From: Entomospira culicis
Lineage (GTDB): Bacteria > Spirochaetota > Spirochaetia > WRBN01
Direction: 5' to 3'
NCBI RefSeq assembly: GCF_028748145.1
Contig: NZ_CP118182.1
Coordinates: 1 to 64,000 of the forward strand
DNA length: 64,000 nt
Both the position numbers and the translations under genes were made by a program. The notes below the pieces were generated by a model. The model made no database searches and had not been told where the DNA came from. It saw only the letters and a list, made by a program, of their open reading frames with translations. Positions within the stretch are counted from its first letter, which is position 1. Each line of letters opens with the position of its first letter. This document shows positions 11,056-41,198 of this stretch, in pieces.

Positions 11056-11913
11056 ATGAGTGAGCAGAGACAAACATTGGTGTTATATAGCCGTAAGCGT
11101 CAAAAAATGAGTTCCCTTCAGACTTATGCCACGATCTTTGCTAATATTTGGAAGCATCGCTGGTTTATTTGGATTCTCTTTGCACGCGACTATTTTATGG
11201 CAAATAAGCGCACCTTTTTAGGGTATGGTTGGCTTTTGTTAGCGCCCCTGCTCTCTTCCATGAGTTGGGTGGCGTTAAACCTTTTGGGCGTTCTTAATAC
11301 CGGTGAGATTAGTGTGCCTTTTCCTCTCTTTGTCTTGATTGGCACCAGCTTTTGGACACTCTTCTTTAATACTTATGCCAATAATGTCGATCTCTTTAGT
11401 ATTGCTAGTGGCATGCTCGGATCGGTTAGTTTTCCGCACGAGACGCTCATTATTGCGCAAACCATGAAAGCTTTAGCGAACTTTTTTATCTCCTCGGTGC
11501 TTAATTTTACCATTTTAATTATTTTTGGAGTCTATCCTACCTTTGCGTGGTTACTTTTGCCCTTCATGTTAATGCCGTTAATCTTTTTAGCTGGTGGGTT
11601 TGGGCTTCTTTTGATGGTAGTGAAACACGCACTTCCCGACTTAGAGCGGGTGTTTGCCTTTTTTCTTCCGATGCTCATGTATATTACGCCGATTGTCTTT
11701 TTACCCACGCAAAAGAGCGAGAAATTCTTCTTTTTGATTAAGTATAATCCCCTCACCTATCTCATTGGTGTACCTAGAGATATTGTCTTATTTGGACACA
11801 GCGATTTTTGGGGGTTTTACGGTTGGGCATCCGTTGCCTCGGCGCTCTTTTTCTTACTGATGGTGAGAGTATTCTACATAGCCGAAGAGTACTTAATTGA
11901 AAAATTATATTAA
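11056..11913 (+). CDS. Polysaccharide ABC exporter, permease subunit (Wzm-like, ABC-2 family)
   Basis: About six hydrophobic helices and the N-terminal signature of ABC-2 polysaccharide permeases: IWILFARDYFMANKRTFLGYGWLLLAP (R/K-x-F/Y near an amphipathic segment, then LG-x-W-L-L-L-x-P). The next gene is the matching ATPase. The pair should carry an undecaprenyl-linked glycan or lipid-linked surface polymer across the inner membrane. Start choice: the longest frame opens at a TTG inside the preceding terminator and is rejected; ATG 11056 fits a leaderless transcript, and ATG 11107 is a second option. It lies 14 kb from the glycan island it may serve (inference). Confidence 0.85.
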   Translation: MSEQRQTLVLYSRKRQKMSSLQTYATIFANIWKHRWFIWILFARDYFMANKRTFLGYGWLLLAPLLSSMSWVALNLLGVLNTGEISVPFPLFVLIGTSFWTLFFNTYANNVDLFSIASGMLGSVSFPHETLIIAQTMKALANFFISSVLNFTILIIFGVYPTFAWLLLPFMLMPLIFLAGGFGLLLMVVKHALPDLERVFAFFLPMLMYITPIVFLPTQKSEKFFFLIKYNPLTYLIGVPRDIVLFGHSDFWGFYGWASVASALFFLLMVRVFYIAEEYLIEKLY

Positions 11914-11923
11914 TGAGGACAAG

Positions 11924-12733
11924 ATGAGCGAGGATATGCACTATTGTAGCGATGAAGAGGCGGTGGTGGTGGTAGAGAAGGTGAGCAAGAAATTTACGCG
12001 TTCTTTACGACGTTCCTTGTTGTACGCTAGTGTGGATATTTTACAGGCGCTGATGCCGATATTTAGTCCCAAAATTAGAGATGATACGCCAGTTTCCTTA
12101 CGTACGGGGGAGTTCTTAGCATTAGACAAGATCTCCTTTCGCTTAAAAAAAGGCGACTCTCTAGCGCTTTTGGGGGTTAATGGATCGGGAAAAACAACAT
12201 TATTACGTTTAATTTATGGAATTTATCCCTTTGATCGTGGGCGCATTGAGGTGCGTGGTAGAATTGGCGCGTTGTTAGCTGCGGGGGTGGGGTTTCACCC
12301 CCAAATGACCGGACGGGAGAACATTTATGTTAATGGTGCAATTTTAGGCATGTCCAAAGAAGAGATTGATCGCCATTTTGACGATATCCTGCAGTTTGCC
12401 GATATTGCCGAATTTATTGATGCGCCTTCGGGTACCTACTCTTCGGGCATGCGGGTTCGCCTTGGTTTTTCCATCGTTATTCATGCGGATGTGGATGTGC
12501 TGATTGCTGATGAGGTCTTGGCGGTAGGCGATGGTGCGTTTCGTGAAAAGTGTTTTACGCGTATTGACGAACTAAAGGCACGTGGTGTCTCGATTATTTT
12601 TGTTTCACACGCCTTAAATCAGGTTAGCAGAGTTTGTGAGAAGTCGCTTTATTTGCAAAAAGGAAAAATGATTGCATTTGGTGATACCGAAGAGATTTTA
12701 GCTCTATACATGGCAGATAATCCTGGGGTTTAG
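11924..12733 (+). CDS. Polysaccharide ABC exporter, ATP-binding subunit (Wzt-like)
   Basis: Motifs in order: Walker A GVNGSGKTTL, ABC signature YSSGMRVRLGFS (the TxxSSGM form typical of polysaccharide exporters), Walker B VLIADEVLAVGD, and the switch His in FVSHAL. GRIGALLAAGVGFHPQMTGRENI is a block characteristic of the TagH/KpsT/Wzt branch. Start is ATG 11924 with GAGGA 5 nt upstream; the longer TTG form overlaps the permease. At about 270 residues it lacks the large C-terminal glycan-binding domain found in O9a-type Wzt, so glycan length control would have to come from elsewhere. Confidence 0.92.
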   Translation: MSEDMHYCSDEEAVVVVEKVSKKFTRSLRRSLLYASVDILQALMPIFSPKIRDDTPVSLRTGEFLALDKISFRLKKGDSLALLGVNGSGKTTLLRLIYGIYPFDRGRIEVRGRIGALLAAGVGFHPQMTGRENIYVNGAILGMSKEEIDRHFDDILQFADIAEFIDAPSGTYSSGMRVRLGFSIVIHADVDVLIADEVLAVGDGAFREKCFTRIDELKARGVSIIFVSHALNQVSRVCEKSLYLQKGKMIAFGDTEEILALYMADNPGV

Positions 12734-25772: not shown

Positions 25773-27083
25773 ATGAAGATAACCATTTATGGCGCAGGCT
25801 ATGTGGGGTTGATTGGCGCGGTGGCTTTGGCAAAGGTGGGGCATGATGTCTTACTTTTAGATGTAGATAGCTATAAAGTTGCACAAATTATGCAAGCCAT
25901 CAGTCCGATTTATGAGGAAAATCTCACTCAGATGCTACAGGAGGTTTTATCTGCCAAGCGTCTTCATGCCTCTACTGATGTGGAATTGGGCGTGGCGCAC
26001 AGTCCCCTACAGATGATTTGTGTGGGAACGCCCACCAACAGCGACGGTAATGCTAACCTTACTTATGTAAAGAGTGTGGTCGATGCGATTGTTACGCATA
26101 ATCATGGCAAAGAGAAGAAGATCATTATCGAGAAATCTACCGTTCCAGTGGGTACGCACACGCTGATCCTCCAGTGGATTGAGGCAATCGGTGGTGATCT
26201 TGATCTTTATGAAGTTGCGAGTAACCCCGAATTCTTGCGCGAAGGTAAAGCCCTGTACGACTTTATGCACCCCGATCGTATTGTGGTTGGCGCATCCAGC
26301 AGTTGGGCGCATGGGTTATTTAGCGAGCTTTATCGCCCCTTTACCGAGCAAGGCGCTCCCCTCCTCTTTACGCAGGTTGCCAGTGCCGAGCTCATCAAAC
26401 AGGCGGCCAATAGCTTTTTAGCGATGAAGATAAGCTATGCCAATATGCTTGCCGAAGTCAGCGAGCGCGTGGGTGCAGATGTCGGTGAGGTTACTCAAGG
26501 TATCGGACTGGATAGGCGCATTGGTGCGCAATTTCTGCAGGCAGGCATTGGCTTTGGGGGTAGCTGTTTTCCTAAAGATGTGCAAGCCTTTATCCGTACG
26601 GGCGAGGAGCTGGGCTTGAACCTTGGTCTATTACGCGAGACGCTCCAGATTAATGCCCGTCAGCGCGATCGCCTGATGAGCAAGATTACGCAAGCCTTGG
26701 GATCGTTACACGATAAACGTATCGCCCTCTTGGGCTTAGCCTTTAAGCCCGACACCGACGATGTGCGTGAGACCCCTGCCCTCTATTTGGTGCGCGAACT
26801 CCTCGGGCGTCAGGCTAGCCTCAATCTCTACGACCCTATCGCGATGCCCAACTTTCAAAAGAGTTTTAAAGCCAGCCCTACCCTGCACTACGCAAGCAAT
26901 CTACAAGATGCGCTTAACGGGGTCGATGCCATTATCATGCTTACCGCCTGGGAGGAATTTATCCACGCCGACTACGCCACGCTTACTAAGACAATGCCCA
27001 CCAAGTTTATCTTTGATGCCCGCAATGCCTTAGACGCTAACGTTTTGCGTAAAAACGGTTTTGTGTACTACGGCATGGGCTAA
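25773..27083 (+). CDS. ugd: UDP-glucose 6-dehydrogenase
   Basis: 436 residues, typical length. Rossmann motif YGAGYVGLIGA at the N-terminus binds NAD+, followed by the acidic LLLDVD strand. The UDP-binding and catalytic regions include EKSTVPVGT, SNPEFLREGKA, a K-x-x-x-N motif (IKQAANSFLAMKISY), GIGFGGSCFPKD with the catalytic Cys near 265, and LGLAFKPDTDDVRE. It oxidises UDP-glucose to UDP-glucuronate, a donor for acidic surface polysaccharides, which fits its place at the head of the glycan island. It has its own promoter and the first palindrome. Confidence 0.95.
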   Translation: MKITIYGAGYVGLIGAVALAKVGHDVLLLDVDSYKVAQIMQAISPIYEENLTQMLQEVLSAKRLHASTDVELGVAHSPLQMICVGTPTNSDGNANLTYVKSVVDAIVTHNHGKEKKIIIEKSTVPVGTHTLILQWIEAIGGDLDLYEVASNPEFLREGKALYDFMHPDRIVVGASSSWAHGLFSELYRPFTEQGAPLLFTQVASAELIKQAANSFLAMKISYANMLAEVSERVGADVGEVTQGIGLDRRIGAQFLQAGIGFGGSCFPKDVQAFIRTGEELGLNLGLLRETLQINARQRDRLMSKITQALGSLHDKRIALLGLAFKPDTDDVRETPALYLVRELLGRQASLNLYDPIAMPNFQKSFKASPTLHYASNLQDALNGVDAIIMLTAWEEFIHADYATLTKTMPTKFIFDARNALDANVLRKNGFVYYGMG

Positions 27084-27510
27084 TGAGAGGAAGGATTGTA
27101 GTGCCACATGGCACCAAGCTCTTTATCCAGCTGTTCTCCGTATCGAAAATTAGCTCCAGCCGATGGCGTAAGGGTGATCTCACCAAAATAAATCTTGCCA
27201 TCTATATAGTACCAATCAATACGGGCATAATCAAGTTCTGTCATTAGTTTTTTTGAAAAATCAAGCATTTGATTAAGAGCTGGTAATTGATGTTGATGTA
27301 CTTTAGCATCAAAATTTGCATGGCTTGCGAGTTTGGTTGGCTGATTAAGCTGATTAACAAATAATTGATAACGATAAATATTTTGATTTCCCTGATAGCC
27401 TATATTTAAATCATCATTAAGATAAAACATATATTGAAAAGAGCCATCAGGTTGTTTAAACATGTGGAATTTGTAATCAATTAAAGCCTCGCCATTGCCT
27501 AGTTGCTTGC
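27080..27510 (-). pseudogene. C-terminal half of a TupA-like ATP-grasp gene
   Basis: The reading frame gives EALIDYKFHMFKQPDGSFQYMF, then LDYARIDWYYIDGKIYFGEITLTPSAG, which is the C-terminal half of the TupA-like ATP-grasp family (teichuronopeptide/polysaccharide modification). The N-terminal half, including the first nucleotide-binding subdomain, is missing; upstream of about 27510 the sequence is unrelated and GC-richer. An open frame continues to ATG 27568 with an unrelated leader, but it is unlikely to be functional. A diverged N-terminal half of the same family is at 29423-30118, and the two share about 45 bp at their broken ends. Confidence 0.75.
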
Positions 27511-27739
27511 AATCTCTTCTCACTCGGGTACATAGCCTGCTCCTACCGCCCAGCTCAAGCCTGCCCATTATAGCCCGGTTTCATTGTATTCCCCTTATCT
27601 AGCAAGAGCATAGCACAGCGCGCGCCAAAGACGTTTGCGTATATGGTTTTTTGGGATCTATTTTGGGCGTGGTTAAATTAAACATAATAAATATTTTATT
27701 TTGTTTAATTTTCATTAATTGATATAAAAAATATAACTA
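27511..27739. other. Non-coding region upstream of the GT-B gene
   Basis: No supported gene. The left part (to about 27650) is GC-richer than the surroundings, possibly remnant DNA from the rearrangement. The right part is very AT-rich and holds the inverted repeat at 27675-27711. Confidence 0.5.
27675..27711. repeat. AT-rich inverted repeat, 17-bp arms
   Basis: AAATTAAACATAATAAA (27675-27691) pairs with TTTATTTTGTTTAATTT (27695-27711), one mismatch, 3-nt loop. It lies about 30 bp upstream of the -35 box of the next gene. Confidence 0.6.
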
Positions 27740-27769
27740 TAGACAGATAGCTGCCATTTATGGTATAAT
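27740..27769 (+). promoter_or_regulatory. Promoter of the GT-B glycosyltransferase gene
   Basis: TAGACA (27740-27745), 18 bp, TATAAT (27764-27769). AGGAG at 27794 supports the GTG start at 27810. Confidence 0.6.
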
Positions 27770-27809
27770 CAACCTGCGCTACCATCATGTTACAGGAGAA
27801 AAAGAAGCC

Positions 27810-29168
27810 GTGAAAAGAGAATTTTTTCGCCGATTAAAGGGATTTCTGGTTAATCTTAAGAAATTACCCCATAGAGTAAAGGCGATTCAAGAAGAACTAG
27901 CCTCTATACAACAGCATGAAGCCTCTCTTGGGTATCGTTTGGATTCTCTGGAACAACATGGAGCCTCTCTTGGCTATCGGCTGGATTCTATACAACAGCA
28001 TGCAAACGCCCTTGATCAGAGCATCGTAGGCGTGGCTGGGGACCAGCACGCAATGCTTCGATCCCTATCGAAACTTCACTATCAACTCTTCTTAAATCAA
28101 GTAGCTGCTATCACTTCTCCTAAACCCAAAATAGTATTCATCGCTCAATATGGACATTCTGGTGGGCTTCAAGAATTTCTCTACAAACGCATTCTCTTTT
28201 TTAGCAAGGACTTTCACATCATTTTACTTTCGCCTGTTCACTACAGTGAGTCGACCAAATTATTCAATATGCAAGAGCTTAGCATGCTTTTTTTTACAGA
28301 AGAGTCGATAGATGCTGTTCTTATCAAAACTGTTTTGACTCATGATATCCGCTGGATAGAGGTACATGATGCACAAAATATGCCAGCCATCAACATCTCT
28401 TTACTAAAAAGCCTTGCCCCCCAAAGTCAGATCTCGGTCTTTTTACACTCAGGTCTAGCCTTTTTGGCGCTAATTGAACGGCTAAAAACCCAAGCCGTGG
28501 ATCGCATTTATGTCTACTCCCAAAGCGTATATAACGATCTCTTGGGGCATGTTGCCTGTCCCATTGTGCAGTATCGTCATCCCTATGTGGTGGAGAATAT
28601 CTATCAAACGCCCAAGGAAGGGGAGAATAACATCTTGCTGGTTAGCCGCATCGCCCAAGATAAAGAGGCTTCGCTCTTCAACCTCTTAGATGCGCTTAGC
28701 CAAAGCAGTTGCACCATTTATATCTCAGGTCACATAGTAGGCGATGAGCCACAGGCGATCGTGCAGAAGATTAAAGCACGCTACCCTAATCATGAGATCC
28801 GTTTTATTGGCTACATTGTGGTAGAAGATTACCTTAAAGCCAATATCGGTAAATTCTTATGCATCGCTGGCGTGGGACAGGTCATCGGTGAGGCGCTCTC
28901 CTTTGGCTATCCTGCCTTGATGACAAGCATTAAACCTGATAATCAAGTGCTCTTTATTACCCAAGAGAATTGGCGCAGCTTTTGGGATAGAAATTTCGTC
29001 TTACGCGATTATCCGGAATTCGTCGAGAATGTGAATCACTACCTAGCCAAACTCATCCAGCGCCAACCCCTAGACGACTTACAGATATTTGAGCAGTGGA
29101 AAGAGCATGCCAGCATCGCTAAAATGTATGGCGATCACCTAAAAACCGTACGGGAGTACTACCACTAG
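27810..29168 (+). CDS. GT-B-type glycosyltransferase with N-terminal coiled-coil repeats
   Basis: The N-terminal 30 residues are basic and amphipathic (MKREFFRRLKGFLVNLKKLP). Residues 38-65 hold two near-identical 14-residue units (ASLGYRLDSLEQHG, ASLGYRLDSIQQHA), probably a short coiled coil for oligomerisation. From about 110 on it resembles GT4-like enzymes: KIVFIAQYGHSGGLQEFL, ILLVSRIAQDKEASLFNLLDAL, IRFIGYIVVEDYL, and GVGQVIGEALSFGYPALMTS, the position of the usual E-x7-E donor motif. Cytoplasmic, probably membrane-peripheral. GTG start. The sugar donor and acceptor are unknown. Confidence 0.78.
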   Translation: MKREFFRRLKGFLVNLKKLPHRVKAIQEELASIQQHEASLGYRLDSLEQHGASLGYRLDSIQQHANALDQSIVGVAGDQHAMLRSLSKLHYQLFLNQVAAITSPKPKIVFIAQYGHSGGLQEFLYKRILFFSKDFHIILLSPVHYSESTKLFNMQELSMLFFTEESIDAVLIKTVLTHDIRWIEVHDAQNMPAINISLLKSLAPQSQISVFLHSGLAFLALIERLKTQAVDRIYVYSQSVYNDLLGHVACPIVQYRHPYVVENIYQTPKEGENNILLVSRIAQDKEASLFNLLDALSQSSCTIYISGHIVGDEPQAIVQKIKARYPNHEIRFIGYIVVEDYLKANIGKFLCIAGVGQVIGEALSFGYPALMTSIKPDNQVLFITQENWRSFWDRNFVLRDYPEFVENVNHYLAKLIQRQPLDDLQIFEQWKEHASIAKMYGDHLKTVREYYH

Positions 29169-29365
29169 TTTTTGAGGTACAGGTGGATACTTTCCTGTTG
29201 GGTTTAGAGGCTACTTCTTTCTATGTAGGGATTAATGTCGTTCTTGGTAAGCATGGAATAAGACGTTTAAAAATGTGTCTATTTAGAGCTAATCTTTAAG
29301 ACTTTTTTTCCTTTTTATGGTATACTAAAATTCGAATAATATTCCTATAGAAGGAAAGTAGTATA
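29169..29365 (+). other. Intergenic region with a weak promoter for the broken GT2 gene
   Basis: No gene. A -10 box TATACT (29321-29326) with a weak -35 lies before an AAGGAAAG ribosome site (29351) of the truncated glycosyltransferase. Confidence 0.45.
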
Positions 29366-29443
29366 TTGAAAGTATCGATTATTGTACCATTTTATGATGT
29401 AGAGCCTTACTTTCGGCGTTGTTTAAGCATGTGGAATTTGTAA
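29366..29443 (+). pseudogene. Truncated GT2 glycosyltransferase (first 24 codons)
   Basis: From TTG 29366 the frame reads [20 protein letters not shown], matching the N-terminus of the intact GT2 genes at 30233 and 31682, then changes abruptly to SMWNL and a stop. The switch occurs at GTTGTTTAA, a string also present in the tupA-like sequence (27451-27459). It is a deletion remnant that retains its ribosome site. Confidence 0.85.
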
Positions 29444-30118
29444 TTCAATTAAGGTCTCGCGATTGCCTAGTCGTTTTTCTTCGGTGATGTGTGGGGTTAT
29501 TCTGGCATAGTGCCTTTCATAGCTACCTGTATGTGGACGTTGCATCCATCGTTCTAATGTCTCTTTTAGCGTCTCTAGCTCTAAATTATTTAACGCTTGA
29601 TTGCCTATGAAGAAATTTTGCGCATAACCATGGTTGACTTTAACCACGCTGTTGGTATATTTATCGGGGTTAGCGATATAGGCATCGACAAACGCTTGCG
29701 CACTGGCAAAGTCATCAATAAGGGGGATAAGGTTCTCCTCGCTACCTAGGAGTTTCCTAACATAGGCTCGTACCCGATACTTATCGGCGAGCAACGGATA
29801 TAGCGAGCTACTTTGGCAGGTGGTGTGGATACACTTCAGCACCTTTTCGCTAAATAAAGTTGGGTGCGTAAAATCGGGGTATCGCCCAAAATTTGCATGA
29901 TATCGTTGCAAGCTAGTAACGGCGGTAAAGTGAAAGTATTTCCGACTTAGTAGCTTAGCAGGTACTACTTTTTTGGCAACATGATAATGAAGCCATGTAG
30001 GCAGAGCTGCAAAATTACGAGTTCTATAATTTCTAGGACAATGTTGGATGCTACGCAATGTTTGGCGCAGTTTTGCTGGTAAGATTTTTTTAAATAGAGA
30101 TTTGATTTGTTGCTTCAT
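29423..30118 (-). pseudogene. N-terminal half of a TupA-like ATP-grasp gene
   Basis: Residues about 75-190 match the TupA-like ATP-grasp start: LFSEKVLKC, LADKYRVRAYVRKLLG, NLIPLIDDF, NSVVKVNHGYAQNFFI (the ATP-grasp lysine region). The N-terminus (MKQQIKSLFKKILPAKLRQTLRS) is basic and amphipathic. After NRETLIE the frame is lost by one extra base relative to the homologous segment at 27468-27507 (GEALIDYKF), and then stops inside the GT2 remnant. It therefore lacks the catalytic C-terminal half and is probably inactive. AAGCAACAA-type ATG at 30118; no clear promoter. Confidence 0.78.
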
Positions 30119-30168
30119 GATAGCTTATTTTACTTGATTAATATATAAAAATCAATAGCCATGCTGCC

Positions 30169-30197
30169 TTGTTTTTTCTTCTTACATATGCTATAAT
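30169..30197 (+). promoter_or_regulatory. Promoter of the GT2-GT2-GT8 operon
   Basis: TTGTTT (30169-30174), 17 bp, TATAAT (30192-30197), then AAGGAGG (30215-30221) before ATG 30233. Confidence 0.7.
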
Positions 30198-30232
30198 AGG
30201 GATATTATTCTCGGAAGGAGGTAGGTAGACTT

Positions 30233-31678
30233 ATGCTCGTATCCATTATTGTGCCCTTTTACAATGTAGAGCCCTACTTTCGGCGTTGTTTAGACTCCAT
30301 CATTAATCAAAGTTATCAAAATTTAGAAATCATCTTGATTAATGACTGTTCCCCTGATAATAGCATCGATATTGCCCGTGAATATGCACAAAAAGATTCG
30401 CGTATTCAAATCATTGAGCATGAGAAATCGCTGCATGTCGGTGGTGCGCGGAACAGTGGTATGGCAGTTGCTAAGGGCGAGTATCTTTGGTTTATTGATA
30501 GCGACGATGCAATTGCTACGCCTTATGCTGTAGAGCACTTGGTTTCTATTGCCCAGCGTGATGATAGCGATATCATTTTGTTTAATGCTCAATCTTTGAC
30601 TGAAGATGGCATTTTACACCCATTATATCATTTTTACTCATATGCACATGAGCAAATTTTTAATGAAAAAAATTCTTTCTATACAGCCTTATCGAAGACT
30701 TTATATCATGCGAAACGTGAATATGGATATTTTGGTCCTGAAGTTTGGAGTAAATTATTTCGAGTCCATTTTTTAAAGCAACATAATTTTTTATTTTTAG
30801 AGCATACTGTGCATCAAGATATTCCATCTTTAATACTTTTTCCTTTGGCTAAAAAAGTTAGTGTATCGCCCTATGTTTATTATAATTATTACCAACGTGA
30901 AGGTAGTACCATGCATAGTCAACCACCATCTGATTACTTGGATCATTTTGCTCGTATATTCGACGATATGTGGGAAATTAGTGATAAATATCTTTTTACT
31001 AAGCAGGAAGATAATGTTTTTGTTGTAGCTCTTTTTATGCCAACACTGCTCTACAATATTCCTCGTATTGCTCCCTTGTTGACTGAAAGTGAGCGGGCAT
31101 TTTATTACTTACGTATATATGATTTTTTAAAGAAATATTTATTAGCTCGCTTAGTATTAAAGAATTTTGAGTCTTGGCCATTGGTTATTGGTTACTCTGA
31201 ATTTTGGCAAGATTTATTTAAGAGTTTTACGGAAGATATTTCTGATATAGAGAAAAGACGTATAGTCCATATTCTTTTTTACCCACGTTTGGAGCAAGAA
31301 CGTTTGGAACAAGAACATTTGGAACAAGAACGTTTGGAACAAGAACGTTTGGAGCAAGAACGTTTGGAGCAAGAACGTTTGGAGCAAGAACGTTTGGAAC
31401 AAGAACGTTTGGAGCAAGAACGTTTGGAACAAGAACGTTTGGAACAAGAACGTTTGGAACAAGAACGTTTGGAGCAAGAACGTTTGGAGCAAGAACGTTT
31501 GGAACAAGAACGTTTGGAACAAGAACGTTTGGAGCAAGAACGTTTGGAACAAGAACTAATTGCGCGTCAGTTTAGTTGGAGTAAAGTTTTTCGAAGATTA
31601 AGAAAAGTCATTAAAATGTTGCTACCGCACGGAATAATACGATTTATTCAAATACAAAAAAGCAAGGAGAGAAAATAG
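30233..31678 (+). CDS. GT2 glycosyltransferase with an 18-unit RLEQE repeat
   Basis: Family 2 (GT-A) fold: [29 protein letters not shown] (residues 36-44), GGARNSG, and the metal-binding FIDSDD (87-92). A variable acceptor region follows to about 350. Residues 352-441 are 18 tandem RLEQE units (one HLEQE), predicted as a 90-residue helix. The tail after the repeat ends [21 protein letters not shown], shared with the following enzymes. It probably adds a sugar to a lipid-linked surface glycan at the inner membrane. The last codons contain the AAGGAGAG ribosome site for the next gene, 3 bp away. The neighbour 31682 lacks the repeat, so it is an insertion between catalytic domain and tail. Confidence 0.9.
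31286..31555 (+). repeat. 15-bp tandem repeat, 18 copies
   Basis: Unit CGTTTGGA[A/G]CAAGAA, 270 bp in total, differing almost only at one A/G position and one CGT-to-CAT change. It stays in frame with every unit gained or lost, so it changes length but not reading frame. Confidence 0.95.
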
Positions 31679-31681
31679 TTC

Positions 31682-32872
31682 ATGCTAGTATCGATTATTG
31701 TACCTTTTTATGGGGTAGAACTGTATTTTAGGCGATGTTTAGATTCAATTATTCGTCAAAGTTATCAAAATTTGGAGATTATTTTAGTAGATGACTGTTC
31801 TCCTGATAGTTGTTTAACGATAGCTAAAGAATATGCGCAAAAAGATGTTCGTATTAAAATTATTGAGCATAAAACAAATCTTCGGCAAGGTGGCGGGCGA
31901 AATAGTGGCATGGTCGTAGCTAAAGGCGAGTATATTTGGTTTATTGACAGCGATGATAGTATTGCATCTCCTTACGCTGTAGAACATTTGGTTGCAATAG
32001 CACAACGCGATAGATCGGATATGGTTATATTTAACGCTCAGTCTCTGAATGAAGATGGGATACTTAAAGCCCTTAATCATTTTTATTCTGGAGTGGAAGA
32101 GCGTGTCTTTAATGATAAAAATTTGTTTTATCCAGTAATTTTTGATTTTTTGTATTATAATAAGCGTAAGTTTGGCTATTTTGGTCCTGAAGTTTGGAAT
32201 AAACTATTTCGACGTTCTTTTTTAGAGGAATATCATTTTACTTTTTTAGAAAACACTCTTTATGAAGACATATCTTCTTTAATATTATTTCCTTTGGCGA
32301 GAACTGTCACAGTTGTGCCGTATGTTTACTATAATTATTATCAGCGTGAGGGTAGTAGTTCTCATATCAAGCCTCCATCTAGTTTTTTGAATCATTTTCA
32401 TGCTATTTTAGAGCATATGAGAAAAATATATACTCTTTTTTTAGATAAAAAACTTAAAGATAATACCTTGGTTTTAGCTTTTTTTCTTCCTACGTTGATT
32501 TACAGTTTAAGACAAATGGATTCTGTCTTAACAGATGAAGAATGGAAGATGTATGCATTAAAGACCTATAGTTTTCTTAAAAAAGAGTTATATCCAGATA
32601 TTTCTTTTAAGGACTTTAATCCTTGGCCAAGTTTATTAGGTAATGACGTTGCTTGGGAGCGCCTCTTTCAAAGCTTTGATCAGGAATGTTCTGATAAGAA
32701 AAAAATTGAATATATAGAAAATATTAAATCATATTCTTTTGTTAGTCCGATGGTTAAGGATGAAAACAAAAGACTGCAGATATTTTTTGTTATAAAAAAA
32801 ATATCAAAAATGTTGTTGCCCTACGGGATGGTTCGATTTATTCAAATACAAAAAAGCAAGGAGAGCAGGTAA
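31682..32872 (+). CDS. GT2 glycosyltransferase
   Basis: 396 residues. [36 protein letters not shown] and FIDSDD define a family 2 enzyme. The middle ([40 protein letters not shown]) closely parallels the upstream gene ([20 protein letters not shown]), so the two are recent paralogs. The tail [21 protein letters not shown] is shared. It is translationally linked to both neighbours (3-bp gaps). Likely transfers a hexose or derivative in surface-glycan assembly; the donor is not predictable. Confidence 0.9.
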   Translation: MLVSIIVPFYGVELYFRRCLDSIIRQSYQNLEIILVDDCSPDSCLTIAKEYAQKDVRIKIIEHKTNLRQGGGRNSGMVVAKGEYIWFIDSDDSIASPYAVEHLVAIAQRDRSDMVIFNAQSLNEDGILKALNHFYSGVEERVFNDKNLFYPVIFDFLYYNKRKFGYFGPEVWNKLFRRSFLEEYHFTFLENTLYEDISSLILFPLARTVTVVPYVYYNYYQREGSSSHIKPPSSFLNHFHAILEHMRKIYTLFLDKKLKDNTLVLAFFLPTLIYSLRQMDSVLTDEEWKMYALKTYSFLKKELYPDISFKDFNPWPSLLGNDVAWERLFQSFDQECSDKKKIEYIENIKSYSFVSPMVKDENKRLQIFFVIKKISKMLLPYGMVRFIQIQKSKESR

Positions 32873-32875
32873 ATT

Positions 32876-34048
32876 ATGAGGAAAGGTACATTAGCTGTCG
32901 CACTAGCTATTGATAACAACTATACAAAAATGGCGATGATTGTGTTGGATTCATTGTTTGGTAATTGTCATAAGGGTACGCGTTATGAGTGTTATATTCT
33001 AAATTATCATTTATCTGTATCTAATCGTCAGAAACTGATGTCGTTAGTGCAATTATACGATCAGCATAACCTAACATTTTTAGATATTCGTGAGGATGAC
33101 TATCAGGCACTTAATCACTTCCCAGAGAATCATTTATCAATTTGGAGTTTAGAGATGTTTTTTCGTCTCTATTTGCCAAAATACTTGCCCATGCATGATC
33201 GAATACTTTATTTAGATGCTGATATTATCGTAAGGGCAGATTTGAGCCATTTAGCCTCCATTGATATGCAAAATAAGGCAATTGCTGCTAGCTTGGATAC
33301 GGCGCACTTGGCCCAGTATCCTACACTTATGCGAGGTCTCTATCGTTTAACCTTGCTTTTAAAGGGGGAGATATCATCGGTAGATCGCAAAGAGATTATG
33401 AGTTTAAATCAAATAAATTCTGGTGTCCTCTTGATGAATTTAGATTTTTGGCGAGAGAAACATCTCCTTGAGCGCGCACTTGAAATGATAAAAGAGATAC
33501 AGATTAATGCCGAACAGCTTTTGTTTGCTCCTCATATTTCGTATAATAATCAATATTTACCTCCAGATCAACTATTCCCAGATCAAGACATTATTAATTA
33601 TCTTACCATTATAGAGCATAAAGATGCCATTTGTCATTTGCCTACGTCCTATAATATTCGCGTATTGTATAATCCTGAAGATCATTTACTAGAGAATGCT
33701 TTCAGTGATGAATACCTTGATTTGAATCAAATTGTTTGGAAAGGAGTTACTGATTCTCTTGTTACATGTGACGGAGTGATCTATGACACAATTCAAATTA
33801 TTCATTTTGCTGGAGTGCGCCCGTGGAAAGCTCAATTTAGTAATCATCCAATAACGCCATTTTTTAGTAAATATGCGCAAAAAGTAGGATTAGAGATGGA
33901 GCAGCCAATGGTTCATCAAGAGCAGTCAATGGTTCATCAAGAGCAGAGGCGTAGTTATTGGCGAATCCTTCTATCGCCTAGAAAGATGATTAAAATGCTC
34001 TTGCCCTATGGTGTAGTGCGATTGATTCAAATTATAAAATCTCGTTAG
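32876..34048 (+). CDS. GT8 glycosyltransferase with the common C-terminal tail
   Basis: Family 8 (LgtC/glycogenin-like, GT-A retaining): an early LAVALAIDNNYTKMAMIVLDSL, FFRLYLPKYLP, the DxD motif YLDADIIV (Asp114, Asp116) and QINSGVLLMNLDFWRE are diagnostic, with a final IHFAGVRPWK His motif. Residues about 340-360 have two copies of an 8-residue unit (SMVHQEQ-like), then KMIKMLLPYGVVRLIQIIKSR, the same tail as the GT2 enzymes. GT8 enzymes usually use UDP-galactose or UDP-glucose. The last codon and stop form the edge of palindrome P2. Confidence 0.92.
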   Translation: MRKGTLAVALAIDNNYTKMAMIVLDSLFGNCHKGTRYECYILNYHLSVSNRQKLMSLVQLYDQHNLTFLDIREDDYQALNHFPENHLSIWSLEMFFRLYLPKYLPMHDRILYLDADIIVRADLSHLASIDMQNKAIAASLDTAHLAQYPTLMRGLYRLTLLLKGEISSVDRKEIMSLNQINSGVLLMNLDFWREKHLLERALEMIKEIQINAEQLLFAPHISYNNQYLPPDQLFPDQDIINYLTIIEHKDAICHLPTSYNIRVLYNPEDHLLENAFSDEYLDLNQIVWKGVTDSLVTCDGVIYDTIQIIHFAGVRPWKAQFSNHPITPFFSKYAQKVGLEMEQPMVHQEQSMVHQEQRRSYWRILLSPRKMIKMLLPYGVVRLIQIIKSR

Positions 34049-34071
34049 TACAACGTTGTACGAACGAGATT
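34038..34071. promoter_or_regulatory. Palindrome P2, extended to 34 bp
   Basis: The core at 34045-34064 (TTAGTACAACGTTGTACGAA) matches the island element except one base. Flanks extend the dyad: AATCTCGTT on the left, AACGAGATT on the right. It overlaps the GT8 stop codon and ends 17 bp before the next GT2 gene, too close for a promoter between them. Confidence 0.85.
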
Positions 34072-34088
34072 AAGGAGTAAATTAGGGG

Positions 34089-35228
34089 ATGTTAGTATCT
34101 ATTATTATACCGTTTTACAATGTAGAGCGATACTTTAGAGCGTGCTTAGCTTCGATTGTACATCAAACGTATACAACCCTAGAAATTCTGCTGATTGATG
34201 ACTGCTCACCAGATAACTCCTTAGCTATTGCTAGGGAGTATGCAGAAAAAGATGATCGTATTAAGATTATCCGTCATGAAAAAAATCTTCGTCAAGGTGG
34301 TGCGCGGAACACTGGATTAAAGGTGGCTAGTGGCGAGTATATTTGGTTTATTGATAGTGATGATGAGATAGCTACACCCTATGCAGTGGAACACTTGGTA
34401 CAGGTTGCAAGGCGTGATGAAAGTGATGTTATATTATTTGGAGCCCAGGGTAAATTTTCAGACCATAAAAAAGAGTGTCTTTACGGGGATTATACGTATA
34501 ATAGAGAGTATGTCTTTAACAAAGAAAATCCTTTTTATACAGTTTATATGAATAACATATTGCATGGTGTGCATGATTATACCTGGCTTAGTCCATCACC
34601 ATGGATGAAATTGTTTAAACGCTCTTTTTTAGAAAAGTATCATTTTAAATTTTTAGAGCATACATTGTATGAAGACATTCCCATGTTAGGCTTACTCCCT
34701 TTAGCCGAGCGGGTAACACAACTGCCTTATGTTTTCTATGATTACTATCAGCGAGAAGGTAGTACGATGAGTAGCGGTATTGCTGCGAATTATGTAGAGA
34801 ATTTCGAACGTCTTGCCCAGCAGTTATGGGAAATTCATGATAGCTACTTGACTGAGTACGAAAGGAGTGAGATGATTGTTCCAGTTGTATTAATGCATCA
34901 TTTGCGATATAATACAAGAAGATTGAAAGCCTCTTTGAGTATACCGGCATACGAACAGTGGTTGGTTGAGATGTATGATTTTTTCAAAGAGCAATTGTCT
35001 TATAGGATTGGCCTTGAGGAGCTGAATCCTTGGCCACGGCGTATCGGGGATCAAATGCAGTGGCAGGCAGTGTTTAGAAGTTTTCAAGATAGTGCTGTAG
35101 CTAAACGTACAAAAGTTCAATTAATAGACAATGTGATAACAGTAAAATCTAAAAAGCTTAAAAAGATGGTTAAAATGCTTATGCCCTATGGTGTAGTACG
35201 ATTGATTCAAATCATAAAATCTCGTTAG
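34089..35228 (+). CDS. GT2 glycosyltransferase
   Basis: 379 residues: SIIIPFYNVERYFRACLASI, IDDCSPDNS, GGARNTGL, FIDSDD. The N-terminal 110 residues are almost identical to the next gene (35267), while the acceptor-side half (for example YTWLSPSPWMKLFKRSFLEKYHF) resembles the 30233/31682 pair instead, so it looks mosaic. The tail is KMVKMLMPYGVVRLIQIIKSR. It lies between palindromes P2 and P3. AAGGAG lies upstream, inside the P2 flank. Role: sugar transfer in the surface-glycan pathway; specificity unknown. Confidence 0.9.
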   Translation: MLVSIIIPFYNVERYFRACLASIVHQTYTTLEILLIDDCSPDNSLAIAREYAEKDDRIKIIRHEKNLRQGGARNTGLKVASGEYIWFIDSDDEIATPYAVEHLVQVARRDESDVILFGAQGKFSDHKKECLYGDYTYNREYVFNKENPFYTVYMNNILHGVHDYTWLSPSPWMKLFKRSFLEKYHFKFLEHTLYEDIPMLGLLPLAERVTQLPYVFYDYYQREGSTMSSGIAANYVENFERLAQQLWEIHDSYLTEYERSEMIVPVVLMHHLRYNTRRLKASLSIPAYEQWLVEMYDFFKEQLSYRIGLEELNPWPRRIGDQMQWQAVFRSFQDSAVAKRTKVQLIDNVITVKSKKLKKMVKMLMPYGVVRLIQIIKSR

Positions 35229-35244
35229 TACAGCGTTGTACTAA
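35225..35244. promoter_or_regulatory. Palindrome P3
   Basis: TTAGTACAGCGTTGTACTAA, one mismatch (G for A at base 9). It overlaps the stop codon of the GT2 gene; the next GT2 gene starts 22 bp later. Confidence 0.82.
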
Positions 35245-35266
35245 TATTTGGAGTAAAAAATAGCGT

Positions 35267-36412
35267 ATGTTGATATCCATTATTGTGCCGTTTTACAATG
35301 TAGAGCGATACTTTAGAGCATGCTTAGATTCGATTGTGCATCAAACGTATCGAAATCTAGAGATTCTACTCATTGATGACTGTTCTCCCGATAATAGCAT
35401 CGAGATTGCCAAAGAGTATGCGCAAAAAGATGATCGTATTAAGATTATCCGTCATGAAATGAATCTTCGCCAAGGTGGTGCGCGGAACACTGGATTAAAG
35501 GTGGCAACGGGTGAGTATATTTGGTATATTGATAGCGATGATGGTATCACCACACGCCATGCGGTGCAAGATTTAGTGGAGTTGGCACAAACCAACGACT
35601 ACCCAGAGGTATTACACTTTGGTGTACAAAGAGTCAATAAAGAAGGTATTACTCGGGGGTTTGCTGATGTTCAACGGCTGTTTGAAGATCCTGAAGAGTA
35701 CTGGCACTATTATATGCATCGGGTTTTTGTGGTGCAAGATGATGCAAAAAATCTTGATTATAGCGTGTGTAATAAGTTATATCGGCGACAATTTTTATTA
35801 GATCATCATTGCTACTTTTTAGAAAACACCTATCATGAGGATGTGATTAGTGCGATGTGGCTACCCCTTGCAAAACGAATATTGATTGTGCACGGTGTAT
35901 ATTATGATTATATTAATCGTCCTGATAGTACCATTACTGGGAAAAAACCCGATAACTATTTAGATCATCTTAATCGAGTGGGGCAACAAGTGATAGCATA
36001 CTATGAGCAATGGTGGAAACCAAGAGACCTGCCTCGGTTTGTCCCAGAGATGATGGTGATTCAGCGATATATTATGTGGTATATTCCTAATATATTGAAT
36101 GAAAATAGTAATCCACATCATATATTGGTAGGAATATATGATGATATGCGGGCGTTATTAGGAAAAGAGCCAGCGCTTTTAAGCCTCGATTCATTACCTA
36201 GTTCTATTATGGCTTGGCCTGTAGATAATTTATCATTAGAAGTGCTTTTGAGGAGTTTCCAGAAAGAGATATCAACGCAGAAGAAATATCAATATGCGCG
36301 TAATCTTTATTGTATTTATGGTTATTGTCGTAGATGGAGTGGAAAAAAATTGATAAAAATGCTCCTTCCCTACGGGCTGGTGCGCATAATCCAACGAATC
36401 AATAAGCGTTAG
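35267..36412 (+). CDS. GT2 glycosyltransferase
   Basis: 381 residues. [37 protein letters not shown], and IDSDD (here YIDSDD rather than FIDSDD). Acceptor half: LDYSVCNKLYRRQFLLDHH and ENTYHEDVISAMWLPLAKR. The tail is KLIKMLLPYGLVRIIQRINKR. A segment of more than 80 bp encoding EYAQKDDRIKIIRHE and GGARNTGLKVA is nearly the same in DNA as in the upstream gene, suggesting gene conversion or recent duplication. It is followed by palindrome P4 over its stop codon. Confidence 0.9.
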   Translation: MLISIIVPFYNVERYFRACLDSIVHQTYRNLEILLIDDCSPDNSIEIAKEYAQKDDRIKIIRHEMNLRQGGARNTGLKVATGEYIWYIDSDDGITTRHAVQDLVELAQTNDYPEVLHFGVQRVNKEGITRGFADVQRLFEDPEEYWHYYMHRVFVVQDDAKNLDYSVCNKLYRRQFLLDHHCYFLENTYHEDVISAMWLPLAKRILIVHGVYYDYINRPDSTITGKKPDNYLDHLNRVGQQVIAYYEQWWKPRDLPRFVPEMMVIQRYIMWYIPNILNENSNPHHILVGIYDDMRALLGKEPALLSLDSLPSSIMAWPVDNLSLEVLLRSFQKEISTQKKYQYARNLYCIYGYCRRWSGKKLIKMLLPYGLVRIIQRINKR

Positions 36413-36428
36413 TACAACATTGTACTAA
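36409..36428. promoter_or_regulatory. Palindrome P4
   Basis: TTAGTACAACATTGTACTAA, one central mismatch. It overlaps the GT2 stop codon and ends 8 bp before the -35 box of the next promoter. Confidence 0.82.
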
Positions 36429-36436
36429 GTATCGGC

Positions 36437-36465
36437 TTGTTTTTTTGATGCAAAAAGATTATACT
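36437..36465 (+). promoter_or_regulatory. Promoter of the CDP-glycerol transferase gene
   Basis: TTGTTT (36437-36442), 17 bp, TATACT (36460-36465). GAGGAG precedes ATG 36496. Confidence 0.65.
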
Positions 36466-36495
36466 TAATAACAGCGTCTATGAGGAGAATGCCCG

Positions 36496-37794
36496 ATGCT
36501 TCAAAAGCTAAAAGATAAAATAAAAAATCGCTTGCGCTCCATGTTAGGGATATCTCAACTGGAAGAGGTGCTTGAGCGTCGAGATCAGATGTTAAAGAAC
36601 GCCAGCGATCTTTTATTACGCGAGGCTAACACCTTTGGACTTCCCCTGCGCGTGCTCTTTTTAGTGTATGACATGCGGGTTTGGAATGCCTTAGATGCTG
36701 TTTATCGTATGATGAAAGACGATGATGATTTTACGGTGATAGTGGCAGTCGTTGCTGATGATGAGCGAGGTGTTACATGTCTTGAGGATAATCAAAGAGC
36801 GATAGAGGCTTTAGGCATAGAGTACTTTATTCTTGGTAATCAAACTGCAGATTTGAATTATCTTAAAACATTAAAACTTCATGTCATTGTTCGCCAATAT
36901 CCTTGGCAAGATGCCTATCCAGATATTTATCGTCCTTATAATTTACAATTTGCTCGTATTTGTTATATCCCCTATGCTTTGTCTATTGTTCAGTTTGAAA
37001 CTGTGGATTACTGGAAAATGGAGATGATGCGAGCATCTTGGCTGGTTTTTAAGCCACAATGGTTATTGGCAGAAAATAACGAAAATATATATGCCTCTGT
37101 CGAGAATCCTTTTTATCCGGTGGGTTACCCTAAGTTTGAATCGATTGTTAAAAGCCGTGCTTCTTGGCCTATCGAGAGTGGTGCGCGTAAATTTCGTATG
37201 ATTTGGTCGCCCCACAACTCTATTTCTGAGAATTGGACTTGGTTACAATTTGGTACTTTTCTAGAAAATTATCAAGATTTTTTAGCGTTTGCTCAGGCAC
37301 AACAGGAGCGTGTAGAAATTGTTTTAGCCGCCCATCCGCATTTTATGGAACGTATTGAGAGCGTTACTTCGGTTGCCACCCAGACTAAAGTGCGTCGCTT
37401 TTTTGCAGAGTGGCAGGCGTTGCCTAATACCGCTATCCATCAGGAGTCGAGCTATGGAGGCATTTTCCATGCCAGTGATTTGTTGATTACCGACGGGATT
37501 AGTTGGCTGATGGAGTATCAATTGATGCAAAAGCCGATTATTTTTATCGAACGCGCCGATCACTGGCCCTTTACCAACTTTGGCAATACCATGATTGAGG
37601 CGGTGCACGCCTACCCTACTTTTCCTCAAGCCAAGGAGAAGATTCTCTCTTTTATGCATGGGGAAAAAGATGAAAAGCTGGCACTGATGCAACGTAACCG
37701 TGCGGCTATCTACGAAGAGGGCGCTGCGCAGAAGATTGTGCAAGCGATCAAAGAGCGTTATTTAGCGGAGGTAAAGCGAAAACGGTTAGAGTAA
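36496..37794 (+). CDS. CDP-glycerol glycerophosphotransferase-family protein
   Basis: 432 residues. The N-terminus (MLQKLKDKIKNRLRSMLG) is a basic amphipathic helix for membrane contact. The C-terminal half has the family's hallmarks: WSPHNSISENWTW, AAHPHFMERI, and HASDLLITDGISWLMEYQLMQKPIIFIE (the SD-x-L-I-T-D motif of TagB/TagF-type enzymes; the usual DYSS is here DGIS). Such enzymes transfer glycerol phosphate from CDP-glycerol to a lipid-linked acceptor. The adjacent, convergent cytidylyltransferase (9-bp overlap) makes the donor, supporting the assignment. Glycerol phosphate is therefore a likely decoration of the island's glycan. Confidence 0.82.
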   Translation: MLQKLKDKIKNRLRSMLGISQLEEVLERRDQMLKNASDLLLREANTFGLPLRVLFLVYDMRVWNALDAVYRMMKDDDDFTVIVAVVADDERGVTCLEDNQRAIEALGIEYFILGNQTADLNYLKTLKLHVIVRQYPWQDAYPDIYRPYNLQFARICYIPYALSIVQFETVDYWKMEMMRASWLVFKPQWLLAENNENIYASVENPFYPVGYPKFESIVKSRASWPIESGARKFRMIWSPHNSISENWTWLQFGTFLENYQDFLAFAQAQQERVEIVLAAHPHFMERIESVTSVATQTKVRRFFAEWQALPNTAIHQESSYGGIFHASDLLITDGISWLMEYQLMQKPIIFIERADHWPFTNFGNTMIEAVHAYPTFPQAKEKILSFMHGEKDEKLALMQRNRAAIYEEGAAQKIVQAIKERYLAEVKRKRLE

Positions 37795-38166
37795 ATTTTT
37801 GAGCTGGGTGCTACTCACATCGGGCGTGCGGGGCAGGTAGATAACCTGACAATAGGCTTGCAGAAAATCAAATTTCCCTTGCCAATCATCGCCCATGACA
37901 AAAATATCAATGGCGTTTTTCTGGATATCGTCTATTTTCTGCTCCCACGACTCTTCACAAAGAATCGCATCGATATACTTAATTTGTGAGAGAAATTCGT
38001 AGCGTAAGGCATAGGGATGAACGGTGGTTTTTCCTTTTTCTTGATTAAACCTATCGCTAGAGAGCCCCACCGTAAGATGATCGCCCAACTGTTTTGCGCG
38101 GTTTAGTAGTTGCATGTGGCCATAATGGAAGAGATCGAATGTTCCGTAGGTGAGAACTTTTTTCAT
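37786..38166 (-). CDS. tagD: Glycerol-3-phosphate cytidylyltransferase
   Basis: 127 residues from ATG 38166, the normal length of TagD/GCT; the longer frame adds an unlikely hydrophobic leader. The signature GTFDLFHYGH (the CTP-binding GTFDxxHxGH), GLSSDRFNQEKGK, MGDDWQGKF and the late RTPDVSSTQL (RTxGISTT in TagD) are present. It makes CDP-glycerol from CTP and glycerol-3-phosphate in the cytoplasm. Its 3' end overlaps that of the glycerophosphotransferase on the other strand. Confidence 0.93.
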   Translation of the reverse strand: MKKVLTYGTFDLFHYGHMQLLNRAKQLGDHLTVGLSSDRFNQEKGKTTVHPYALRYEFLSQIKYIDAILCEESWEQKIDDIQKNAIDIFVMGDDWQGKFDFLQAYCQVIYLPRTPDVSSTQLKNLL

Positions 38167-38233
38167 CCTAAATAGTATACTCCATGTCAGTAAAAAAAGC
38201 AATCCTTTCTCCTAAATTTGCCTTGAGGTTCCA

Positions 38234-38262
38234 AGACAAAAGCATCAAGATATGCTACAATA
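38234..38262 (+). promoter_or_regulatory. Weak promoter of the fifth GT2 gene
   Basis: AAGACA, 17 bp, TACAAT upstream of GAAGGGAG and ATG 38291. The -35 matches only four of six consensus bases. Confidence 0.4.
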
Positions 38263-38290
38263 AGTCATTAAAGATAAGAAGGGAGTAGGC

Positions 38291-39478
38291 ATGCGCATAT
38301 CATTGATTGTACCGTTTTATAATGTGGAGGCTTATTTACGCGATTGTTTAGATTCGATTGTGCATCAAACGTATCGTGATTTAGAGATTATCTTGGTGGA
38401 TGATTGCTCACCAGACAACTCTTATGCCATCGCCTGTGAGTATGCTAACAAAGATAGCCGTATTAAAATTATTCGTCATGAGGTAAATAAGGGGTTGGGC
38501 GGTGCGCGTAATAGTGGTGTATGCGCTGCCACCGGCGAGTATGTTTGGTTTATCGATAGTGATGACTATATCTTCTCTTTAACCAGCGTGGAGGAGATTG
38601 TGAAGGAGCTTACGCATGCGCATTTTCCTGAAATGGTCGGCTTTGGTGCTGTCAATCTCTATCCCGATGGATACAAAGAGCTGGTTTTACACGAAGTTCG
38701 AAGCAAAGAACTGTTTAGGGATCCTTTAGCGTTACTGCAATATAAATTACGATTGAATAAGGTGGAACAACCGCACTCTCCCTTAGACGGCTATGCCTGG
38801 CATCGGTGGTTTAAACGCTCGTTTTGGCAACGTATTGGTGTGCATTTTTTAGAGAAAACGCTCTTTGAAGATATGTTTTTAATTAACATGACGGGGTTAG
38901 CGCAAGGATTTCTCGCATTAAGAGCACCCCACTACACCTATCGCAAGCGCTTTGGCAGTATTTTAGCCAGCGGTTATCCTGCCAATTTTGATGCGCATAT
39001 CAACCGTTTTATGGCGCAAATTATCAATCTACAACAAACACATCGACAAGCGCATTTTATCCAGTATTGTAATTATATGAATCTTGGTATGCTCTCTTTA
39101 GGTAGCTTTATCGGTGAAAGTTGGCGAGAGACGCTTGTACATAGCTTAAAAAGAGAGCCACAGCGAGCAAAGGAGCTTTATCTCTCCTTTGTATCCCTCT
39201 TTGGCGATCTGATCGCTAGCGATCCATCGTTAAAAGAAATCGAAGCGCTGGGGGCATTCAAACCAGATGAGCTTCAGCGCTTAGTGGATTTTTTTCAGAT
39301 GATGCACAGAGAAAATCCTAGCATAAATCACTATAAGGTATTAAATCGATTATTTCAACCCAAACGCTATCTTTTGAAAGACGTGATTCGTACGACCTTA
39401 CCTTTTGGCTTGTTAAACATTGTCTTGGAACAACGTGGCTGGCGCGTATTGATTAAAAAGAAAGAGTCTATGCACTAG
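38291..39478 (+). CDS. GT2 glycosyltransferase
   Basis: 395 residues: [42 protein letters not shown]. The acceptor half is its own type (LDGYAWHRWFKRSFWQRIGVHFLEKTLFEDMFLINMTGLAQ) and the C-terminal tail is a diverged form of the island tail (DVIRTTLPFGLLNIVLEQ), so it is the most distant of the five GT2 enzymes. Likely extends or branches the surface glycan. Monocistronic; palindrome P5 follows 42 bp after its stop. Confidence 0.9.
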   Translation: MRISLIVPFYNVEAYLRDCLDSIVHQTYRDLEIILVDDCSPDNSYAIACEYANKDSRIKIIRHEVNKGLGGARNSGVCAATGEYVWFIDSDDYIFSLTSVEEIVKELTHAHFPEMVGFGAVNLYPDGYKELVLHEVRSKELFRDPLALLQYKLRLNKVEQPHSPLDGYAWHRWFKRSFWQRIGVHFLEKTLFEDMFLINMTGLAQGFLALRAPHYTYRKRFGSILASGYPANFDAHINRFMAQIINLQQTHRQAHFIQYCNYMNLGMLSLGSFIGESWRETLVHSLKREPQRAKELYLSFVSLFGDLIASDPSLKEIEALGAFKPDELQRLVDFFQMMHRENPSINHYKVLNRLFQPKRYLLKDVIRTTLPFGLLNIVLEQRGWRVLIKKKESMH

Positions 39479-39520
39479 AAGATTTTTAAGGTGGTAAGTA
39501 GAGATTAGATTAATATATCG

Positions 39521-39540
39521 TTAGTACAACGTTGTACTAA
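39521..39540. promoter_or_regulatory. Palindrome P5
   Basis: Perfect copy of TTAGTACAACGTTGTACTAA. It ends 16 bp upstream of the parA -35 box. Confidence 0.88.
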
Positions 39541-39556
39541 TTTGGGGCATATTGAC

Positions 39557-39585
39557 TTGATATAATGCATAATTTGTGCTATAAT
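39557..39585 (+). promoter_or_regulatory. parAB promoter
   Basis: TTGATA (39557-39562), 17-bp spacer, TATAAT (39580-39585). GAGGGG precedes ATG 39614. Confidence 0.8.
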
Positions 39586-39613
39586 AAGCATATATCATGA
39601 TGAGGGGTGTTCG

Positions 39614-41179: not shown

Positions 41180-41198
41180 GAAGGCTTGATCGCTTAGG

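What the first reader, a model, noticed from the sequence alone, without database searches (positions are those of the whole stretch)
31286..31555. 18 tandem 15-bp repeats (RLEQE) inside a glycosyltransferase
The repeat unit is uniform except for one A/G position, so it is young and expandable. Each unit is in frame, so slippage would tune the length of a helix (about 90 residues) between the catalytic domain and the tail without turning the gene off. A neighbouring paralog (31682) has no repeat. It may be a molecular ruler or a contingency element.
Basis: partly seen in the sequence, partly recalled or inferred. Interest (0 to 1): 0.68.

Follow-up and report, generated by a model that had tools for sequence, protein, structure and literature searches.

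The report
Repeat-built helical arm in glycosyltransferase
In a mosquito-gut spirochaete, a sugar-transferring enzyme carries 18 near-identical five-residue repeats, predicted to form a stiff helical arm between its catalytic part and a membrane-binding tail; this resembles the length-variable Helicobacter fucosyltransferases, but copy number does not differ between the only two (identical) plasmids available.

Summary
The array is real. Eighteen in-frame 15-bp units (31286-31555) encode (R/H)LEQE x18 in an intact GT2 glycosyltransferase of Entomospira culicis plasmid p98. Two positions vary between units, not one. AlphaFold2 makes the array part of one unbroken helix (residues 338-445). It has Leu spread over every heptad position, no hydrophobic seam, a salt-bridge triad at nearly every unit and net charge -19. 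That fits a single alpha-helix spacer better than a leucine-zipper coiled coil. Behind it lies a basic amphipathic tail (+11), shared by five consecutive GT2/GT8 genes and by glycosyltransferases of other spirochaetes. Of 58 GT2-like ORFs examined only this one has such an array, and no other of 296 Spirochaetota genomes has three exact RLEQE units in a row. The layout (catalytic domain, tandem repeats, amphipathic tail) is that of Helicobacter pylori FutA/FutB and, in concept, WbdD, both described as molecular rulers. No LpxC or Wzy/WaaL was found, so any ruler would act on a non-LPS glycan. New variant of a known kind; function unproven.

The parts
30233..31678 (+). GT2 glycosyltransferase gene (481 aa; PVA47_RS07920, WP_167696384.1) that contains the array
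   Evidence: ORF; Pfam PF00535 E 4.4e-36; annotation
30236..30940 (+). GT-A catalytic domain (about residues 2-236), with FIDSDD and downstream Asp196 conserved
   Evidence: alignment; AlphaFold2 model and fold search (5hea GalT1, TarS, TarP, RmlT)
31244..31567 (+). single predicted uninterrupted helix, residues 338-445, containing the array
   Evidence: AlphaFold2, pLDDT 92-95 over residues 361-390, falling towards the end
31286..31555 (+). 18 x 15-bp in-frame tandem repeat encoding [R/H]LEQE, net charge -19
31556..31675 (+). basic amphipathic C-terminal tail (40 aa, charge +11, hydrophobic moment up to 0.70), containing the shared KMLLPxGxxRxIQ motif
31682..32872 (+). GT2 paralog (60% identical in the catalytic region), no array, same tail
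32876..34048 (+). GT8 glycosyltransferase with the same tail
   Evidence: PF01501
33899..33946 (+). different short tandem repeat (21 bp x 2.3) at the same domain/tail junction in the GT8 gene
   Evidence: TRF
34089..35228 (+). GT2 paralog with the same tail
35267..36412 (+). GT2 paralog with the same tail
11056..11913 (+). ABC-2 exporter permease, TarG/Wzm-like (possible exporter of the glycan; 18 kb away, link inferred)
   Evidence: phmmer to 9cfl, 9cfp and 6jbh TarG; weak NCBIfam Wzm match
11924..12733 (+). ABC exporter ATPase, TarH/Wzt-like
   Evidence: phmmer to 6jbh TarH E 1.3e-54 and 6amx/6oih ABC transporter

Best explanation
A recently grown in-frame minisatellite encodes a long, highly charged single alpha-helix (18 x RLEQE, about 135 A if fully helical at 1.5 A per residue) joining the GT-A catalytic domain to a basic amphipathic tail. 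The tail probably holds the enzyme at the cytoplasmic membrane surface, or docks it in the glycan-assembly complex, and the acidic helix works as a stiff, repelling spacer that lets the active site reach acceptors farther from the membrane. Array length therefore sets reach and can change by whole units without breaking the frame or the downstream genes. Shown: the array, its frame, its place between domain and tail, the shared tail, the predicted helix, the lack of a seam. Inferred: membrane binding, spacer function, effect of length on the glycan, change of copy number.
For: Array in frame and intact. One continuous helix predicted, best confidence over its first half. No hydrophobic pairs at i+3 or i+4, 16 alternating salt-bridge triads (i, i+3, i+7), Leu spread over all heptad positions, net hydrophobic moment 0.02; these match published single-alpha-helix criteria (PMC5812594). 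Tail +11 and strongly amphipathic, conserved in five adjacent GT2 and GT8 genes and in glycosyltransferases of two other spirochaete families. Catalytic residues kept, GT fold matches. Known enzymes with the same layout are sensitive to arm length: FutA/FutB and WbdD. The next gene starts 3 bases after the stop, so frame-keeping changes would spare the likely operon.
Against: No experiment. Paralogs with the same tail have no arm, so the arm is not needed for this kind of enzyme in general. No copy-number variant seen. Helix confidence falls to 37-58 near the tail, and AlphaFold2 tends to give long helices for such sequences (own knowledge). No lipid A or O-antigen ligase genes found, so the acceptor is unknown.
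Confidence: 0.45

Rival explanations
1. Neutral growth: the junction between domain and tail tolerates almost any soluble insert, and the array is a recent slippage or unequal-recombination product without effect on function.
For: The junction is variable across paralogs: a ~24-residue unrelated linker in 31682, a different 21-bp repeat in the GT8 gene. The units are almost identical and hence young. Other p98 genes also carry in-frame repeats, e.g. the lipoprotein-like gene 1886-3265.
Against: The unit keeps helix-forming, seam-free composition with one replacement in 18 units and no frameshift or stop; but since the units descend from a few duplications this is weak.
Confidence: 0.35
2. Coiled-coil oligomerisation arm: the repeats zip two or three enzymes together, as suggested for FutA/FutB and described for WbdD.
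For: Long helix; related GT-A enzymes form oligomers (5hea hexamer); FutA/FutB repeats were suggested to dimerise.
Against: 5-residue spacing puts Leu on every heptad position; no hydrophobic pairs at i+3/i+4; moment at 102.9 degrees 0.03 against 0.43 for GCN4.
Confidence: 0.1
3. Contingency locus: copy number changes often and diversifies the surface glycan within populations.
For: Near-identical in-frame units in a glycosyltransferase; FutA/FutB repeats do vary within one host.
Against: Same 18 units in both available isolates; units carry point differences, with longest exact repeat 66 bp. Plasmids identical everywhere, so the test has little power.
Confidence: 0.08

Closest known systems
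Helicobacter pylori FutA/FutB alpha-1,3-fucosyltransferases (GT10), heptad-repeat ruler
   Same: In-frame tandem repeats of a short peptide join the catalytic domain to C-terminal amphipathic helices (PMC4202792); described as a ruler with repeat number following O-antigen size (PMC2583950).
   Different: GT10/GT-B, 7-residue DDLRINY repeat, 2-17 copies in those papers, observed to vary; here GT2/GT-A, 5-residue seam-free repeat, 18 copies, no variation seen, no LPS genes found.
E. coli O9a WbdD coiled-coil ruler
   Same: Cytoplasmic glycan enzyme held away from the membrane by a helical arm with a membrane-interacting C-terminus, in an ABC-exporter pathway (PMC5082667; PMC3482155).
   Different: WbdD is a kinase/methyltransferase terminator with a trimeric coiled coil, not a glycosyltransferase; its arm is not described there as a minisatellite; here no seam.
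Single alpha-helix (SAH) domains
   Same: Long charged monomeric helix as a rigid connector, stabilised by i+3/i+4 salt bridges and lacking hydrophobic seams (PMC5812594).
   Different: Natural SAHs are rich in E, K and R; this has one Leu and one Gln in five, twice as many E as R.
TarS/TarP/RmlT and GalT1 GT-A glycosyltransferases
   Same: Best structural matches of the catalytic part.
   Different: 14-24% identity over the aligned part; sequence matches to these chains cover only the N-terminal catalytic region (searched without the array).

Membership tests
GT2 glycosyltransferase (PF00535) | Family profile and GT-A acidic motif | tested here: met
   E 4.4e-36; FIDSDD and Asp196 conserved
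FutA/FutB-type repeat ruler | Catalytic domain, in-frame tandem repeats, amphipathic basic tail in this order | tested here: met
FutA/FutB-type repeat ruler | Homology to GT10 fucosyltransferases | tested here: not met
   Only GT2-type families match
FutA/FutB-type repeat ruler | 7-residue repeats | tested here: not met
   5-residue unit
FutA/FutB-type repeat ruler | Repeat number varies between isolates | tested here: inconclusive
   Two isolates equal, but whole plasmid identical
FutA/FutB-type repeat ruler | Repeat number follows glycan size | not testable with these tools
   Needs mutants and glycan analysis
Coiled-coil ruler (WbdD-like) | Hydrophobic seam with heptad spacing | tested here: not met
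Single alpha-helix domain | Continuous helix, charged, no hydrophobic seam, salt-bridge networks | tested here: met
   sequence and model only
Single alpha-helix domain | Monomeric and helical in solution | not testable with these tools
   Needs CD and SEC-MALS
Contingency (phase-variable) locus | High-rate copy-number change | tested here: inconclusive
   No variant in the two assemblies; no reads available

The most novel reading that the evidence does not exclude
A GT2 glycosyltransferase whose reach is set by a genetically adjustable single-helix arm: a repeat-encoded ruler that is monomeric (no coiled coil), acts on a non-LPS spirochaete glycan exported by a TarGH/Wzm-Wzt-like transporter, and arose independently of Helicobacter FutA/FutB.
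Probability: 0.15. Interest if true: 0.65.

Novelty: new variant of a known kind. Interest (0 to 1): 0.38.

Why it matters
If length matters, it would show that repeat-built arms evolved more than once as rulers in glycan synthesis, and would allow arm length to be separated from oligomerisation, which FutA/FutB and WbdD do not easily allow. It also gives a handle on the unstudied surface glycan of a mosquito-gut spirochaete.

Tried and rejected
Assembly artefact: rejected (66-bp longest exact repeat, two concordant assemblies). Leucine-zipper coiled coil: not supported. Transfer of the array from the RLERE repeats of the lipoprotein-like gene at 1886-3265: no genome match to the two-unit RLEQE codon pattern outside the array, so judged a separate origin. 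Looking for copy-number variants in other Entomospira species: their plasmids are not in the collections and no congener is held. Array DNA in viral contigs: none. Close relatives in genome contigs: only 29-36% identical glycosyltransferases. O-antigen length control: unlikely, no LpxC or Wzy_C found. Literature searches for other in-frame repeat glycosyltransferases found nothing relevant beyond H. pylori.

Full report
Identity of the window. Bases 27000-42000 match plasmid p98 of Entomospira culicis BR149 (NZ_CP118186.1, 98,591 bp) at 100% and at the same coordinates. The genome the window lies in has contigs of 1,639,587, 98,591, 28,402 and 3,005 bp. The published table gives a 3,005-bp third element for isolate BR151 and 3,028 bp for BR149 (PMC11636382), so the window is most likely BR151 p98. 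That step is an inference from sizes. Both isolates came from Culex pipiens midgut in South Moravia in 1999.

The observation. The gene at 30233-31678 encodes 481 residues, with 18 consecutive units of 15 bases from 31286 to 31555, all in frame. The two-unit pattern, even with three mismatches allowed, never occurs in shuffled sequence. The units differ at two places: a silent GAA/GAG change spread over the array and one Arg-to-His change in unit 3. The order of the silent variants repeats with a shift of 8 units (9 of 10; permutation P about 0.03 over all shifts), suggesting that a 120-bp block was duplicated, so growth was probably not only by single units. The longest exact repeat inside is 66 bp, well within a 150-bp read.

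Variation. The complete p98 of BR149 and of the window's genome are identical, 98,591 of 98,591 bases. Copy number is therefore the same, but with no difference anywhere the pair carries little information on the rate of change. Plasmids of the other two species are not held.

Anatomy of the protein. Residues 2-236 are a GT-A domain (PF00535), with the FIDSDD motif largely and Asp196 fully kept in the aligned relatives. Its best structural matches are GalT1, TarS, TarP and RmlT. AlphaFold2 gives one helix from 338 to 445, with pLDDT 92-95 over residues 361-390, falling to about 37-58 at the far end. The array has net charge -19 and the 40-residue tail +11, with a segment of hydrophobic moment 0.70. 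Leu recurs every five residues, so it visits every heptad position; there are no hydrophobic pairs at i+3 or i+4, and 16 alternating salt-bridge triads at i, i+3, i+7. These are features used to separate single alpha-helices from coiled coils (PMC5812594). I therefore favour a monomeric spacer helix over a zipper.

Neighbours. Five consecutive genes, four GT2 and one GT8, end in the same motif KMLLPxGxxRxIQ, although GT2 and GT8 are different families, and glycosyltransferase-like ORFs of two other spirochaete families end alike. The tail thus looks like an exchangeable module; membrane or complex docking is an inference. The junction before the tail differs in every paralog: 31682 has about 24 unrelated residues, the GT8 gene has 2.3 copies of another 21-bp repeat. 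In the sister-family genome (another genus of the same family) a GT2 enzyme has a diverged NLQxEYN-like seven-residue pattern before its tail (L038). Helical or repeated inserts at this junction therefore recur, which fits both a tolerated linker and a spacer that is used. Among 58 GT2-like ORFs from the fetched loci only the window gene has an array of more than three copies, and none of the other 295 Spirochaetota genomes searched has three exact RLEQE units in a row.

Pathway. p98 also carries a TarG/Wzm-like permease and a TarH/Wzt-like ATPase. In such pathways glycans are built on the cytoplasmic side before export (established knowledge), the setting in which WbdD works as a ruler (PMC5082667). 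The link between exporter and this gene cluster, 18 kb apart, is inferred. LpxC and Wzy_C were not found, while the same searches ring in control genomes, so the product is unlikely to be LPS O-antigen.

Known parallels. In H. pylori FutA/FutB, 2-10 copies of a seven-residue repeat connect the enzyme to two amphipathic helices (PMC4202792); repeat number changes within hosts and correlates with O-antigen size (PMC2583950). The E. culicis gene has the same layout with another catalytic family, another repeat length and probably another helix type. It works like, but is not a member of, that family.

Verdict. Real and unusual, with a sound structural reading and a published parallel; the contingency claim is without support and the ruler claim untested.

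Noticed in passing
27080-30118: A TupA-like ATP-grasp gene seems split: C-terminal part 27080-27568(-) matches PF14305 positions 122-239, and 29423-30118(-) may be its N-terminal part; between them sits a glycosyltransferase-like gene (27810-29168, +).
   Followed up: partly
29369-29428: Remnant of a GT2 gene start, 85% identical to residues 2-21 of the repeat-bearing enzyme, a sign of past recombination among the paralogs.
   Followed up: partly
2636-2882: 36-bp x 6.9 array (93% match) encoding [12 protein letters not shown] in a lipoprotein-like gene 1886-3265, next to degenerate RLERE/ERQEK repeats at 2042-2626.
   Followed up: no
27910-27989: 42-bp x 1.9 repeat (QHEASLGYRLDSLE, two heptads) near the start of a glycosyltransferase-like gene.
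   Followed up: no
39614-41179: ParA/ParB pair; a second ParA/ParB pair and another ParB lie elsewhere on p98, which also carries a gyrA-annotated gene; the plasmid looks like a fused or chromid-like replicon.
   Followed up: no
L038:7598-8950: GT2 enzyme of a genome from the same family (other genus) with a seven-residue NLQxEYN-like pattern between catalytic domain and tail: a possible diverged coiled-coil counterpart of the arm.
   Followed up: partly
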